The notes beneath the pieces are model-generated. The model searched no databases and was not told the DNA's origin. It saw only the letters and a program-made list of their open reading frames with translations. Positions 1 to 19,972 of a stretch of DNA of 43,866 nucleotides are shown here, in pieces. The stretch is taken from positions 1-43,866 of the forward strand of contig JAADCT010000001.1 in assembly GCA_013154305.1 (NCBI GenBank). Direction: 5' to 3'. Source of the stretch: Aquificota bacterium (GTDB lineage Bacteria; Aquificota; Aquificia; Aquificales; QOAS01). The number at the start of each line of letters is the position of its first letter. The first letter of the stretch is position 1. A program made the position numbers and the translations under genes.

Positions 1-8
1 TCTTTGAC

Positions 9-794
9 GTGGTTCAGGAGGCCCTCTACACCCTCGAGGCCTTCGGTTTAATCACCACCGAGGAGCACAAGGGTAAGAAGGTCCACAAGCTGACCGAGCA
101 CGGTCAGCAGGTTCTCGACGACATGAAGCAAAGGGGCTTTCGCGAAATTACCTCGACGGCGGTCAAGGCCATCACCATCACCAACCGCGAAATTTCGGCG
201 CCCAACGTCGACTGGTACAACAAGGCGGTCGACGAAAAGCTCGTCGGTGCGGGTGAACCCACCGTCTCCGGAAAGCTTTACGCCGACCTGGCCTACAACA
301 TCCGCCGTTTGCCCCACATTACGCGCTTTGAGCTCCAGGTTCTCCACCGCATTCCCGCCCGCGGCTTCTTCCTGAAGGACGTTTACGCCCAGTTTGACGA
401 AACTTGGAAAGAGGAGGTCACCTACGCCCTCAACAAGCTCGAGGCCCGCGGTTACCTCAACATCCTGCAAAACGAGGCGGTGGTTCTGACCGAGGTCGGT
501 CAGCTTATTAAGGAGGCCCTGGCGGGCGTTCCCGAGGGGGTTGCCCAGCCGCTGACGCCCATCGCGGTCCGCATCCTCGACGCGCTGCGCAAGGTCGGAA
601 ACCTCTACGTTAAGGAAGAGCGCGTCAGGATTTTGCCCAAAAACATCGAGGAGGCCCTCAGGCTAACCGGCCTCGACAAGGAAACCTTCGAAAAGGAATT
701 GGTCGTTCTCAGGGTGGCCGGCCTCATCGGCCGAACTTCCATAAACAAGGCGGGCCTGCAGGTCCTGAAGGCCCTCGAATTGCTGAACGCCTAA
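9..794 (+). CDS. DUF505-like protein, C-terminal part; frame is open upstream, so probably truncated by the window edge
   Basis: Frame is open to the window start (FDVVQEALYTLEAFGLI...). Repeated winged-helix-like units (ALNKLEARGYLNILQNEAVVLTEVGQLIKEAL; LVVLRVAGLIGRTSINKAGLQVLKALE). Confidence 0.6.
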   Translation: MVQEALYTLEAFGLITTEEHKGKKVHKLTEHGQQVLDDMKQRGFREITSTAVKAITITNREISAPNVDWYNKAVDEKLVGAGEPTVSGKLYADLAYNIRRLPHITRFELQVLHRIPARGFFLKDVYAQFDETWKEEVTYALNKLEARGYLNILQNEAVVLTEVGQLIKEALAGVPEGVAQPLTPIAVRILDALRKVGNLYVKEERVRILPKNIEEALRLTGLDKETFEKELVVLRVAGLIGRTSINKAGLQVLKALELLNA

Positions 795-15628: not shown

Positions 15629-16090
15629 ATGGGTTTTTGGGAGGCGCTGTTTTTGGCCCTGCTGGCGGTGGCGCTCGGTCTGACGGGCTTTGCGGCCTAC
15701 CGCTGGTGGCGCTTTAAAAAGAAACTCTCCTACGCCGAGGAAATGGTCGGAAAGGAGGTCGAGGACCTCCTGGCCCTTCCCAACCTGAGGGGCGTTCAGG
15801 TTCCGATAAACCTCCCCAAAAAGGGTGAGGTCGTCCTCTTTTTCACCGGACCCGGTTGCAAGCTCTGTCCCAAACAGGAAAAGGAACTGAAAAAACTGCC
15901 CTCCAACCTGAGGGTGGAGAGGCTCGACGTTCGGACCAAGAGGGGAAAGGCGCTGGCCGCCCTCTTTCGGGTCGCGGTTTTGCCGACGGTCGTCGTCCTG
16001 AAGGACCGGACGATAGTCGGCTACTTTACCCTCTTTACGACCAAGGACAAGGTTTTAAAGGCCCTGACGGGAAAGGGAAAGAAGGGTTAA
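15629..16090 (+). CDS. Membrane-anchored thioredoxin-fold protein
   Basis: N-terminal TM helix, then '[59 protein letters not shown]' (CxxC, cis-Pro context). Confidence 0.78.
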
Positions 16091-16395
16091 ACCTCGGCCT
16101 CCGTTTCGGCCGTTTCCAAGGTTTTGGCCCTTTCGAGGATTTTAACCACCACCCACCTCTTGGTTTTGGAAAGGGGCCGCGTTTCGCGGATTACGACCTT
16201 GTCGCCCACCTTGCACTCGTTGTTAGGGTCGTGGGCGTGATACTTTTTGCTCTTTACGACGGTTTTTCCGTAAAGGGGGTGGGGAAACTTACGGTCGACC
16301 TTAACGACGACCGTCTTGTCCATCTTGTCGCTTACGACGATGCCGACCAGTTCGCGCCTCTTTTCGTGCCAAGCCCTCTCCTTCTTTTCGGCCAT
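16087..16395 (-). CDS. rpsQ: 30S ribosomal protein S17
   Basis: '[74 protein letters not shown]'; SD 'gggagga' upstream. Confidence 0.97.
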
Positions 16396-17105: not shown

Positions 17106-18101
17106 GTGAAGGTCGTAGTTTGGCAGTCGGCCTTTTTGGGCGACCTCATTCTGGCCACCAACTTCTTGGACAACCTCCTTCGAAACCTCCCCTCGGCAAA
17201 GGTATTACTGGTGGCCCGCCCCTTTGCGGTCGAACTTTTAAGGGGTTTCCACCCCAACCTGGAGGTCCTTCCCCTCGAAAAGACCCTCAGGGGGACGCTG
17301 GAGGCCGTAAGGGCCGCCAGGGGGGCGGATTTGGCCTTCGGCCTCCAAAGGGGGGCGCGGACCTCCCTGGCCCTCTTTATGACGGGGGCAAAAAGGCGGG
17401 TCGGCTTCGACCGGGCGGAGCTCTCTTTCCTCTACACCGACCGGGTTCCCCACCGCTGGGGACTCCACGAGGTTGAGAGAAACCACCAACTCCTTCGGGC
17501 CGTCGGCCTTCGCGTCTACGGCGACCGCCTGCGCCTTCCCGTCGACGCCGACCTTTTGAGGAAGGTAAGGGAGCGCTTCGGCCTTCCTCCGCGTTTCGTC
17601 CTGGTCTCGCCGGGCGCCAACTTCGAGCCCAAGCGGTGGGCGCCCGAAAACTTCGCCGAGGTCGTCCGAAAGCTTTTAAAAAGGGGCGTCGGGGTCGTGC
17701 TTTCGGGCTCGGCGGCCGACCGGCGGGCGGCCGAAGAGGTTTTGGCCTCCTTGGGTTCCGCCGAGGGCGTTTGGAACCTGACGGGGAAAACTTCGGTGCG
17801 GGAGTTCGTTCACCTGATAGCCGCCGCCGAGGCCGTTTTGGCCAACGACAGCGCCCCCGTCCACGCGGCCGAGGCGGTTCAAACGCCCGTTTTGACGGTC
17901 TACTGCGCCACCGACCCCTACTACGGCTTTTACCCGCGAAGCGGCGTCTACCTCGTTCCCCGAAACCTCGACTGCCACCCCTGCAAGCCCAATCCCAAAG
18001 TTTGCAAAACCGGCACCTACGCCTGCCGCTTTTCCGTTTCTCCCCAAGAGGTCTTTGATAGGCTGTGGGACCTCCTGGGGAAAAAGAGGGTCGCCGACTG
18101 A
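17106..18101 (+). CDS. Glycosyltransferase family 9 / LPS heptosyltransferase II-like
   Basis: 'VVWQSAFLGDLILATNFLDNLLR', 'VLVSPGANFEPKRWAPENFAEVVRKLL', 'LANDSAPVHAAEAVQTPVLTVY'. Confidence 0.87.
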   Translation: MKVVVWQSAFLGDLILATNFLDNLLRNLPSAKVLLVARPFAVELLRGFHPNLEVLPLEKTLRGTLEAVRAARGADLAFGLQRGARTSLALFMTGAKRRVGFDRAELSFLYTDRVPHRWGLHEVERNHQLLRAVGLRVYGDRLRLPVDADLLRKVRERFGLPPRFVLVSPGANFEPKRWAPENFAEVVRKLLKRGVGVVLSGSAADRRAAEEVLASLGSAEGVWNLTGKTSVREFVHLIAAAEAVLANDSAPVHAAEAVQTPVLTVYCATDPYYGFYPRSGVYLVPRNLDCHPCKPNPKVCKTGTYACRFSVSPQEVFDRLWDLLGKKRVAD

Positions 18102-18108
18102 GGCCGGT

Positions 18109-18873
18109 TCACTCCTCCCCTTCCTCCTCCTCCGGAAGGTCGAGGTTTTTGGGCCTCTCCCTCAAAAGGGTTCCCTCGTAGCGGAAACGCCCCTTTTCGA
18201 AGGTCGCCTTTATTACGAAGTACTCCTCGGAGACGAAGTTCCGAACTTCCCTCTCGCGGTCGACGAGGATTTTCAGCGTCGGCGTTTGGACCCTTCCCAC
18301 CGACCACACGGAGCGGTCCTTTGCCTTCAGGGAAACCAACCTCGTCAGGTTGACCCCCACAATCCAGTCGGCGTGTTGGCGGGCCAGGGCCGAGTAGTAG
18401 AGCCCGTCGAAGGCGGAGGCGGGCCTCAGCTCCTTCAGCCTCTTTTTGACCACCTCGGGCGTTAGCGCCTCGGAAGTCCAAAAGCGGTAGGTCCGGTCCC
18501 AGCGCCTCCAGCCCGCCTCCTCCAAAACCTCGCGGGCGATGAGTTCGCCCTCGCGGCCCGGGTCGGTGGCCACGACGACGGCGTCGACGCGCTTTAAAAG
18601 CTCCTTCAGGACCTTAAACTGCTTGCCGGCGCCGCGGCGGAGCTTTCTCCTGAACTCGGACGGAAAGAGGGGAAGGGTTTGAAGGGACCACCTCCTCGGA
18701 ACTATCGAGTCGTCGACCTCAAACAGGTGACCCAGGGCCCACGAGATTAAAAACTTCCCGCAGTCGTAATAACCCTCCTTTTTGACGCAACCGCCGAGGG
18801 CCCGCGCAAAGTCCTTGGCCTGGGAGGGTTTCTCGGTAAGGAGCAAAACCTTCTTAGGTTCGTGCAAGTCCAT
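18109..18873 (-). CDS. Toprim-containing topoisomerase-IA-like protein lacking the catalytic tyrosine domain
   Basis: 'VLLLTEKPSQAKDFARALGG', 'VVVATDPGREGELIAREVLEEAGW', 'RFWTSEALTPEVVKKRLKELRP', 'LARQHADWIVGVNLTRLVSLK', 'SVGRVQTPTLKILVDREREV'; ends about 50 aa later with acidic 'LPEEEEGEE'. Confidence 0.85.
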   Translation of the reverse strand: MDLHEPKKVLLLTEKPSQAKDFARALGGCVKKEGYYDCGKFLISWALGHLFEVDDSIVPRRWSLQTLPLFPSEFRRKLRRGAGKQFKVLKELLKRVDAVVVATDPGREGELIAREVLEEAGWRRWDRTYRFWTSEALTPEVVKKRLKELRPASAFDGLYYSALARQHADWIVGVNLTRLVSLKAKDRSVWSVGRVQTPTLKILVDREREVRNFVSEEYFVIKATFEKGRFRYEGTLLRERPKNLDLPEEEEGEE

Positions 18874-18937
18874 TTCCCCCAAAGGGAAAGGGTAAGGAAA
18901 AAAGACCCGAGAGGGGTAAGGAAAAGGGGCGGGACCC

Positions 18938-19972
18938 TTACTCGAAAACGCCCTCTATCTTTCTGCCGCACCTGGGGCAGTAGCCGCCCGGTTTGAGGTT
19001 GTAGCGCCTGAGGGTGTAGCCGAAGCGCTCGATGAGAAGCTCTCCGCAGTCGGGACAGTAGGTGTTTTCCCAATCGGTGTGGGGAATGTTTCCGGCGTAA
19101 ACGTAGTAGAGGCCCTTTTCCTTACCGACGCGAACGGCGTATTCAATCATCTCCATCGGCGTAGGGGGAAGGTCCTGGGCCTTGTAGTGGGGGAAGAAGC
19201 GGCTCACGTGCCACGGCACCCAGGGGGCAAGCTCGTCCCTAATCCACTCGGCAATTTGCTCGATTTGCTTTTCGTCCAGGTACTTGGGAACCAAAAGCGT
19301 CGTTATCTCAATCCACTTTTGGGCCTCGAAGGTCTTCTTAATCGCCTTGAGAACCGGCTCCAGCCTTCCCTTGGAATACTTCCGGTAGGCCTCGTCGGAG
19401 AAAAACTTCAGGTCGTAGGCGAAGGCGTCGATAACCTCAAGAAGCTCCTCCAGCGGCTTTTCCTCGATGTAGGCGTTGGAAACGACCACGGTGTAGAGAC
19501 CCGCCTTTTTGGCCTCTCGGGCAACGTCGAGCATGTATTCGAAGTAAATAGTCGGCTCGGTGTAGGAGAAGGAGATGCTCTTGCAGCCCGTCTCTATCGC
19601 CTTGCGGACCACCGCCTCGGGCGGAACGAAGGTTTCTATGAATATCGGCGTCTTCTCGGCCACCTTCGGAGGAACCTGCGAAATTTCCCAGTTTTGGCAA
19701 CCGAGGCACTTGAAGTTACAACCCGGCGTTGCAATCGTAAACGTCAGGTGCCCCGGCAGGAAGTGATAAAGCGGCTTTTTCTCTATCGGGTCGACCGCCG
19801 CCGAAATCAGCGTTCCGTAGGTGAAAGTAACCAGCTTTCCGCCCTCGTTCTTGCGAACGCCGCAAATGCCGTATTGACCGTCCTTGAGCTTGCAGTGGTG
19901 CGGGCAAAGGTCGCACTGAACCCTCTTTTGCTCCTCGTCGATTACGTGCCAGTGCTTTGCAACCGCTTTCAT
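18938..19972 (-). CDS. amrS: AmmeMemoRadiSam-system radical SAM enzyme (AmrS-like)
   Basis: 'CDLCPHHCKLKDGQYGICGVRKN', radical SAM motif 'TPGCNFKCLGCQNWEIS', 'PWHVSRFFPHYK', C-terminal CxxC pair 'CPDCGELL...CPRCGRKI'. Confidence 0.93.
   Translation of the reverse strand: MKAVAKHWHVIDEEQKRVQCDLCPHHCKLKDGQYGICGVRKNEGGKLVTFTYGTLISAAVDPIEKKPLYHFLPGHLTFTIATPGCNFKCLGCQNWEISQVPPKVAEKTPIFIETFVPPEAVVRKAIETGCKSISFSYTEPTIYFEYMLDVAREAKKAGLYTVVVSNAYIEEKPLEELLEVIDAFAYDLKFFSDEAYRKYSKGRLEPVLKAIKKTFEAQKWIEITTLLVPKYLDEKQIEQIAEWIRDELAPWVPWHVSRFFPHYKAQDLPPTPMEMIEYAVRVGKEKGLYYVYAGNIPHTDWENTYCPDCGELLIERFGYTLRRYNLKPGGYCPRCGRKIEGVFE

What the first reader, a model, noticed from the sequence alone, without database searches (positions are those of the whole stretch)
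18109..18873. Stand-alone topoisomerase-IA-like protein that stops before the catalytic tyrosine domain
Seen: Toprim motifs (TEKPSQA, ATDPGREGE) and SVGRVQTPTL of topoisomerase III, but the ~254-aa ORF ends about 50 aa after SVGRVQTPTL with an acidic tail. Known: in TopA/TopB the catalytic Tyr lies well downstream in another domain. Downstream minus-strand DNA is the antisense of an intact heptosyltransferase gene 7 bp away, so no decayed C-terminal half sits there. Inference: either a stable truncated paralogue with a new role (primase-like, nuclease-like or regulatory Toprim protein) or half of a split enzyme.
Basis: partly seen in the sequence, partly recalled or inferred. Interest (0 to 1): 0.65.

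Follow-up and report, generated by a model that had tools for sequence, protein, structure and literature searches.

The report
N-terminal half of a split topoisomerase III
In a small genus of uncultured Aquificales bacteria, a DNA-untangling enzyme that is normally one protein is encoded as two separate half-genes at distant places in the genome; the first half carries the metal-binding site and the second the catalytic tyrosine, so the two proteins almost certainly have to meet to make one working enzyme.

Summary
Window 18109-18873 (minus strand) encodes a 254-aa protein with the Toprim domain and the SVGRVQTPTL segment of topoisomerase III, and it stops before the tyrosine domain. The missing part is in the same genome. 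Contig C71 carries an intact 474-aa ORF that starts where the window protein ends and holds the catalytic Tyr (SYPRTES); Pfam Topoisom_bac is covered at 4-79 here and 92-405 there. Both halves are intact and well inside their contigs. They recur as separate, conserved genes in three other species of the genus, and in a fourth whose N half lies in an assembly gap. A fifth species has the enzyme as one 589-aa chain and is sister to the split clade, so one ancestral split is likely. No TopA was found in the genus, so this is its only type IA topoisomerase besides reverse gyrase. The break lies in a hypervariable acidic loop of the hinge domain (about E. coli TopIII residues 237-253). Best explanation: an obligate two-subunit topoisomerase III with an active site completed in trans. 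Split archaeal reverse gyrases are the nearest precedent; I found no report of a split bacterial topoisomerase I or III. Assembly and activity are inferred, not shown.

The parts
18109..18873 (-). N-terminal half of split topoisomerase III (254 aa; Toprim domain I, first segment of domain IV, first beta-hairpin of domain II)
   Evidence: ORF and translation; Pfam PF01751 and PF01131 4-79/411; NCBIfam TopB; AlphaFold2 pLDDT 87.6, best fold match E. coli TopIII
18817..18837 (-). Toprim motif TEKPSQA with the conserved Glu (E. coli TopIII E7)
   Evidence: alignment with E. coli TopB
18544..18570 (-). Toprim motif ATDPGREGE (E. coli D103 and E107 conserved, D105 replaced by G as in most TopB)
   Evidence: alignment; DxGREGE seen in most TopB loci
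18274..18303 (-). SVGRVQTPTL, type IA topoisomerase signature segment
   Evidence: translation; mostly invariant across alignment A3
18109..18150 (-). Acidic disordered C-terminal tail (KNLDLPEEEEGEE and stop): the split point, in the place of the acidic domain-II loop of full-length relatives
   Evidence: alignment at E. coli ~237-253; pLDDT below 50 for residues 249-254
18938..19972 (-). Upstream neighbour on the same strand (AmmeMemoRadiSam-type radical SAM enzyme), possibly co-transcribed with the N half; not part of the enzyme
   Evidence: NCBIfam TIGR04337 345 bits, cut-off 220; about 64 bp between its stop and the N-half ATG
17106..18101 (+). Convergent heptosyltransferase-like gene, intact, 7 bp from the N-half stop codon (boundary, not part of the system)

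Best explanation
This is the N-terminal subunit of a topoisomerase III that has been divided into two genes. The N subunit (this window) supplies the Toprim domain with the metal-binding acidic residues and the first part of domains IV and II. The C subunit (contig C71 of the same genome, 474 aa) supplies the rest of domains II and IV and domain III with the catalytic tyrosine. The two are proposed to form a non-covalent heterodimer held together mainly through the divided domain II and the Toprim/III/IV contacts, rebuilding the toroid and its active site in trans. The Tyr of the C subunit would cleave single-stranded DNA while the Toprim residues of the N subunit assist cleavage and religation; strands then pass through the gate between domains I and III as in ordinary type IA enzymes. 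Shown: both genes, their complementarity, their conservation, shared ancestry, and confident separate folding of each half in prediction. Inferred: heterodimer formation, activity and essentiality.
For: Same genome: a whole-genome search finds exactly two PF01131 matches, 4-79 here and 92-405 on C71; the C71 ORF is intact, 474 aa, with VVSYPRTESRHL, PF01131 at residues 10-313 and a C-terminal Toprim_Crpt module. The ORFs lie 10-25 kb inside their contigs, so at least about 29 kb apart and not cut by contig ends. Conservation: separate N and C ORFs in G004 (both with flanking genes), in G005 (N half interrupted by an intein and running across two contig ends) and in G006 (N-half ORF begins at a contig start); C half alone in G003. 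In G003 the murG and DUF72 genes that flank the N half in G004 are also absent, so the N half probably lies in an assembly gap. The halves abut without loss: the last N residue and first C residue both align to E. coli TopIII residue ~253, in a hypervariable acidic loop that is long in most full-length Aquificota relatives. Catalytic set conserved across the pair: E7, D103, E107 equivalents in N; Y328, R330, H381 in C. Trees: split proteins group together with full-length G001 as sister (UFBoot 88-94). Purifying selection: dN/dS 0.13 for the G003/G004 C half; 66-70% (N) and 56-66% (C) identity of the window genome's halves to those of its congeners. No TopA in the genus, only reverse gyrase. 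Each half is predicted to fold confidently on its own (pLDDT 87.6 and 90.1) and both match the same E. coli TopIII structures best. Joined in silico, the pair scores 522 bits for TopB against 563 for the full-length relative G001.
Against: No biochemical or co-purification data. A two-chain structure prediction could not be run. All genomes of the genus are metagenome-assembled. G002 (88% complete) has neither half and G003 lacks the N half, both plausibly incomplete assembly but not proven. Alternative placements of full-length G001 inside the split clade are disfavoured but not rejected (AU p 0.07-0.16). The joined pair and the full-length relatives tested (G001, L074) fall just below NCBIfam's TopB cut-offs (597 and 515.75 bits).
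Confidence: 0.9

Rival explanations
1. The N half has been repurposed as a stand-alone Toprim protein (primase-like, nuclease-like or regulatory), and the C half serves another role or is decaying.
For: The N half contains a complete Toprim domain that is predicted to fold well alone, and the two genes are in unrelated neighbourhoods that differ between species.
Against: The segment after Toprim (domain IV helices, SVGRVQTPTL, first hairpin of domain II), useful only in a complete toroid, is conserved (66-70% identity over the half). The C half is under purifying selection and keeps Tyr, Arg and His. The genus has no other TopI/III to fill the role.
Confidence: 0.04
2. Assembly artefact, strain-mixture chimera or recent pseudogene: the gene is really one piece.
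For: All genomes are fragmented metagenome assemblies. One apparent two-piece case elsewhere in the phylum (G082, contig C47) is such an artefact: its frames break at ambiguous bases.
Against: Both halves sit deep inside contigs with intact neighbours in G000, and inside contigs with neighbours on both sides in G004; several assemblies with different accession prefixes (JALSNH, JALWDU, JALVTI, JAADES) show the same break. Both ORFs have their own start and stop codons, and the C half keeps HIT and/or gcvT as neighbours in four genomes.
Confidence: 0.02
3. The halves are ligated into one chain after translation by a split intein, or at RNA level by trans-splicing, so the mature enzyme is a single polypeptide.
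For: Inteins are common in this genus' topoisomerases: all four assembled reverse gyrases have one in the Toprim motif, and the G005 N half has one at ATD.
Against: Neither half carries intein sequence at the junction: the N half ends right after its acidic tail and the C half begins a few residues before its first helix. The known intein site (Toprim motif) is about 150 residues away from the split.
Confidence: 0.02
4. The halves associate only conditionally or with other partners (for example with reverse gyrase), so that the split is a regulatory device.
For: The genes are unlinked and in different neighbourhoods, so the two products could be made in different amounts.
Against: No direct evidence; no extra interaction domain on either half apart from the ordinary zinc-type module present on the G000 C half only.
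Confidence: 0.02

Closest known systems
Bacterial topoisomerase III (TopB; E. coli TopIII, PDB 1D6M/1I7D/2O19)
   Same: Best match of both halves by fold, and of the N half by sequence; all catalytic residues; TopB-type Lys after the Toprim Glu (EKPS)
   Different: Two polypeptides from unlinked genes; lacks the 17-aa insertion before the GLGT motif, which I identify with E. coli's decatenation loop (from memory), as do all Aquificota relatives examined
Two-subunit reverse gyrase of Methanopyrus kandleri
   Same: Type IA enzyme of a hyperthermophile naturally split so that the boundary does not follow the helicase/topoisomerase border (PMC8185306; split sequences also in PMC6878951); from memory, the small subunit carries the catalytic Tyr and the large one the Toprim part
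   Different: Reverse gyrase with a helicase domain, archaeal; here a plain topoisomerase III in Bacteria; the exact split positions were not compared
Split reverse gyrase of Nanoarchaeum equitans (Capp et al. 2010, cited in PMC8185306)
   Same: Naturally split type IA enzyme
   Different: Split between helicase and topoisomerase domains, leaving the topoisomerase domain in one piece; here the topoisomerase domain itself is divided
Full-length TopB of the same genus (G001, DTXZ01, 589 aa)
   Same: Nearest unsplit homologue; N part 65-70% and C part 56-60% identical to the halves; same acidic loop (GEEEEES) where the others are split
   Different: Single gene, beside an LpxK-like gene
Human TopIII-alpha with RMI1
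   Same: A type IA topoisomerase that works with a second polypeptide at domain II and the central cavity (PMC4109787, PMC9960139)
   Different: RMI1 is an unrelated OB-fold accessory protein; here the second polypeptide is part of the topoisomerase itself

Membership tests
Bacterial topoisomerase III (TopB) | Toprim domain with conserved Glu and Asp...Glu residues | tested here: met
   N half: E7, D103, E107 equivalents present in all split N halves and all full-length members with that region; D105 is Gly as in most TopB
Bacterial topoisomerase III (TopB) | Catalytic Tyr and Arg in domain III (YPRT/S) | tested here: met
   Met only by the pair: absent from the window protein, present in the C half on C71
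Bacterial topoisomerase III (TopB) | TopB-type rather than TopA-type sequence | tested here: met
   TopB models score best for both halves; joined pair TopB 522 vs topA_bact 253 bits, below the 597 curated cut-off, as is full-length G001 at 563; tree places the pair with full-length TopB relatives, away from Aquificota TopA
Bacterial topoisomerase III (TopB) | Single polypeptide | tested here: not met
   Two unlinked ORFs
Bacterial topoisomerase III (TopB) | Decatenation loop in domain IV (as in E. coli TopIII) | tested here: not met
   17-residue E. coli insertion before GLGT missing in all Aquificota TopB and in L069, L071, L076; not universal in TopIII (human TopIII-alpha lacks the loop, PMC4109787)
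Bacterial topoisomerase III (TopB) | Mg-dependent ssDNA cleavage, relaxation and decatenation | not testable with these tools
   needs purified proteins
Two-subunit (split) type IA topoisomerases such as M. kandleri reverse gyrase | Complementary parts of one topoisomerase domain on two genes, conserved among relatives | tested here: met
   five genomes carry separate halves (four with both)
Two-subunit (split) type IA topoisomerases such as M. kandleri reverse gyrase | Helicase domain (reverse gyrase) | tested here: not met
   neither half has one; the reverse gyrase is a separate gene
Two-subunit (split) type IA topoisomerases such as M. kandleri reverse gyrase | Subunits form a stable complex | not testable with these tools
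Stand-alone Toprim proteins (primase, OLD nuclease, RecR, small Toprim) | Toprim in a non-topoisomerase context | tested here: not met
   the rest of the protein is topoisomerase III sequence and fold

The most novel reading that the evidence does not exclude
Because the chain is cut in the hinge domain (domain II), the two-subunit enzyme could open at the subunit interface as well as at the DNA gate, giving a type IA topoisomerase with a second, exit-like gate; or the unlinked genes could let the cell switch topoisomerase III on and off by matching the two subunits.
Probability: 0.05. Interest if true: 0.85.

Novelty: new variant of a known kind. Interest (0 to 1): 0.58.

Why it matters
Type IA topoisomerases open and close as a single-chain ring. 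A natural enzyme cut in the hinge domain, conserved across several species and apparently the only TopI/III they have, would show that the ring can be rebuilt from two pieces, and it offers a ready-made system for testing how the two active-site parts and the hinge cooperate: the parts can be mixed, mutated or labelled separately. It also warns annotators: each half alone looks like a truncated or pseudogene topoisomerase, and together they fill an apparent absence of TopA/TopB in these genomes.

Tried and rejected
Decay or frameshift downstream: rejected, an intact gene follows 7 bp away and no other PF01131 fragment exists in the genome. Loss of catalytic residues in Toprim (DPGRE for DPDRE): rejected as a sign of decay, since most TopB have it. 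My first idea that the break falls in E. coli's decatenation loop: not supported; by the papers that loop is in domain IV, and the matching 17-aa insertion is absent here, while the break is in a domain-II loop. Split intein at the junction: none found. Other split TopB in the phylum: G082 looked split but its frames are broken by ambiguous bases. Absence of the N half in G003: probably an assembly gap, since the murG and DUF72 genes that flank it in G004 are also absent. The original M. kandleri and N. equitans papers were not in the library, so split positions could not be compared.

Full report
OBSERVATION. The minus-strand ORF at 18109-18873 (254 aa from ATG; 257 from an upstream TTG at 18882) has the Toprim motifs TEKPSQA and ATDPGREGE, the SVGRVQTPTL segment, and ends in NLDLPEEEEGEE. 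Pfam sees Toprim and only positions 4-79 of the 411-position topoisomerase domain; the best NCBIfam matches are TopB, profile positions 2-227 of 669. The neighbouring heptosyltransferase-like gene is intact, convergent and 7 bp away.

THE OTHER HALF. A search of the whole genome (1.149 Mb, 78 contigs, 94% complete) with PF01131 gives exactly two matches: the window (4-79) and contig C71 (92-405). The C71 ORF (24385-25809, minus strand, 474 aa) begins MGRPSPFALTEEEARRIFDDL and contains the catalytic SYPRTES motif. It lies between a HIT-family gene and gcvT. The window is the whole of contig C59; both ORFs lie more than 10 kb from any contig end, so the genes are at least about 29 kb apart and contig breaks cannot be the cause.

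CONSERVATION. Six further genomes of the same genus (GTDB grouping; Aquificota/Aquificales MAGs, named by matching contigs) were examined. G004 and G006 have separate N and C genes. G005 also does, with its N half interrupted by an intein (PF14890) and broken across two contig ends. In G006 the N-half ORF begins at a contig start. G003 has the C half; its N half is missing together with the murG and DUF72 genes that flank it in G004, so it is probably an assembly gap. G001 has a single full-length gene of 589 aa. G002 (88% complete) has neither. The C half keeps HIT and/or gcvT as neighbours in four of five genomes; the N half sits in a different place in each genome in which its surroundings can be seen. 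Among 136 Aquificota genomes searched, only this genus shows the split; about ten others have an unbroken TopB of this group, and the one apparent exception (G082) is caused by ambiguous bases. In the genome collection, none of the best 80 hits outside the genus was a split pair: they had full-length frames, apart from frames cut by contig ends; those missed by my motif filter were read by hand.

WHERE THE CUT IS. Aligned with E. coli TopIII and full-length relatives, the N half ends and the C half begins at about E. coli residue 253, inside a loop (E. coli ~237-253) that is absent or short in the TopA sequences and is expanded, acidic and hypervariable in most full-length Aquificota TopB (for example GEEEEES in G001). 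No sequence is lost and no intein sits there. The literature describes a domain-IV decatenation loop and a second loop in domain II in E. coli TopIII, both missing in TopI (PMC9960139). I infer that the cut is in the second; the 17-aa insertion that I identify (from memory) with the first is absent from all these enzymes.

ACTIVE SITE. E7, D103 and E107 equivalents are in the N half; Y328, R330 and H381 equivalents are in the C half; all are conserved in every split member for which that half is available. The Asp-to-Gly change at D105 is the usual TopB state. Thus neither half can be a type IA topoisomerase alone, and together they have the full set.

EVOLUTION AND SELECTION. The split proteins group together, with G001 as sister (UFBoot 88 on a wide tree, 94 on the focused concatenation; 76 for N alone and 90 for C alone). 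Placing G001 inside the split group is disfavoured but not rejected (AU p 0.07-0.16). One split in a common ancestor is the simplest history. dN/dS is 0.13 for the only close pair (G003/G004 C half); other pairs are near or beyond saturation at synonymous sites. The terminal branches of the split proteins are about as long as or shorter than that of the unsplit G001, so the split did not visibly relax constraint.

PLACE IN THE CELL. No TopA was found in the genus; besides this enzyme its only type IA topoisomerase is reverse gyrase, which in our genome is seen only as an N-terminal piece at a contig edge (C15) and in G003 was not found. The split TopIII is therefore probably the genus' only enzyme of the TopI/TopIII kind and is likely to be needed for growth (inference from the general requirement for type IA enzymes).

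STRUCTURE. Predicted alone, the N half has mean pLDDT 87.6 with a disordered acidic tail, the C half 90.1. Both give E. coli TopIII as the best solved match, over complementary parts as judged by sequence. The N half ends with two strands (221-227, 230-236) and the C half starts with a helix and a long strand (11-23, 26-39). By comparison with the known domain layout (established knowledge) domain II is built from both chains, as is domain IV.

MECHANISM (inferred). The two chains assemble through the shared domains II and IV into the ordinary toroid; the C chain's Tyr forms the 5'-phosphotyrosyl link while the N chain's Toprim coordinates Mg2+; domain III swings open and strands pass, as in other type IA enzymes (PMC8191776). 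I give 0.9 to an obligate two-subunit TopIII. Repurposing of the Toprim half (0.04), artefact (0.02), protein or RNA ligation (0.02) and conditional assembly (0.02) are the rivals.

COMPARISON. Split type IA enzymes are known among archaeal reverse gyrases: M. kandleri, where the two polypeptides do not follow the domain border, and N. equitans, where they do (PMC8185306, PMC6878951). I found no report of a split topoisomerase I or III in Bacteria in the library searched, though most subscription papers are not held. Hence: new variant of a known kind.

LIMITS. All genomes of the genus are MAGs; expression, complex formation and activity are untested; the survey for splits outside Aquificota was limited to the best 80 hits of one scan.

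Noticed in passing
L038:2-1279 (-) and L039:2-1021 (+) (genome G005, contigs C19 and C36): The G005 N half carries an intein in the Toprim motif (VILA|SVGYDEP...GVCQHN|TDPGREGE; Pfam Intein_splicing and an HTH_3 domain inside). It runs off both contig ends, so it is probably one gene broken by assembly, though a truly split intein is not excluded.
   Followed up: partly
L042, L043, L044, L045 (reverse gyrase of G001, G002, G004, G005): All four assembled reverse gyrases of the genus have an intein in the Toprim motif (ending HN|TEGEK), in two sizes (frames of ~1430 and ~1690 aa), distantly related to the G005 TopB intein (27-37% over short stretches).
   Followed up: partly
L167 (G000:C15:1-3000): Our genome's reverse gyrase is seen only as the first ~64 profile positions at the very edge of contig C15; the rest is not in the assembly.
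   Followed up: partly
window 16087-16395 (-): A gene for 30S ribosomal protein S17 stands alone between a thioredoxin-like and a metallo-beta-lactamase-fold gene rather than in a ribosomal protein operon.
   Followed up: no
L001:1012-2436 (-), residues ~395-470: The G000 C half has an extra C-terminal zinc-type module (CRCGG...CPSCG, Toprim_Crpt) that the other four split C halves lack; theirs end in a basic tail (for example KRKSYRRRRRTK).
   Followed up: no
L158 (G082:C47): An apparent two-piece TopB in another Aquificota genus is due to ambiguous bases breaking the frame.
   Followed up: yes
L069, L070, L076, L078, L080: TopB proteins close to the Aquificota group occur in Metallosphaera, other Sulfolobales and one record labelled Euryarchaeota, suggesting transfer between thermophilic bacteria and archaea.
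   Followed up: no
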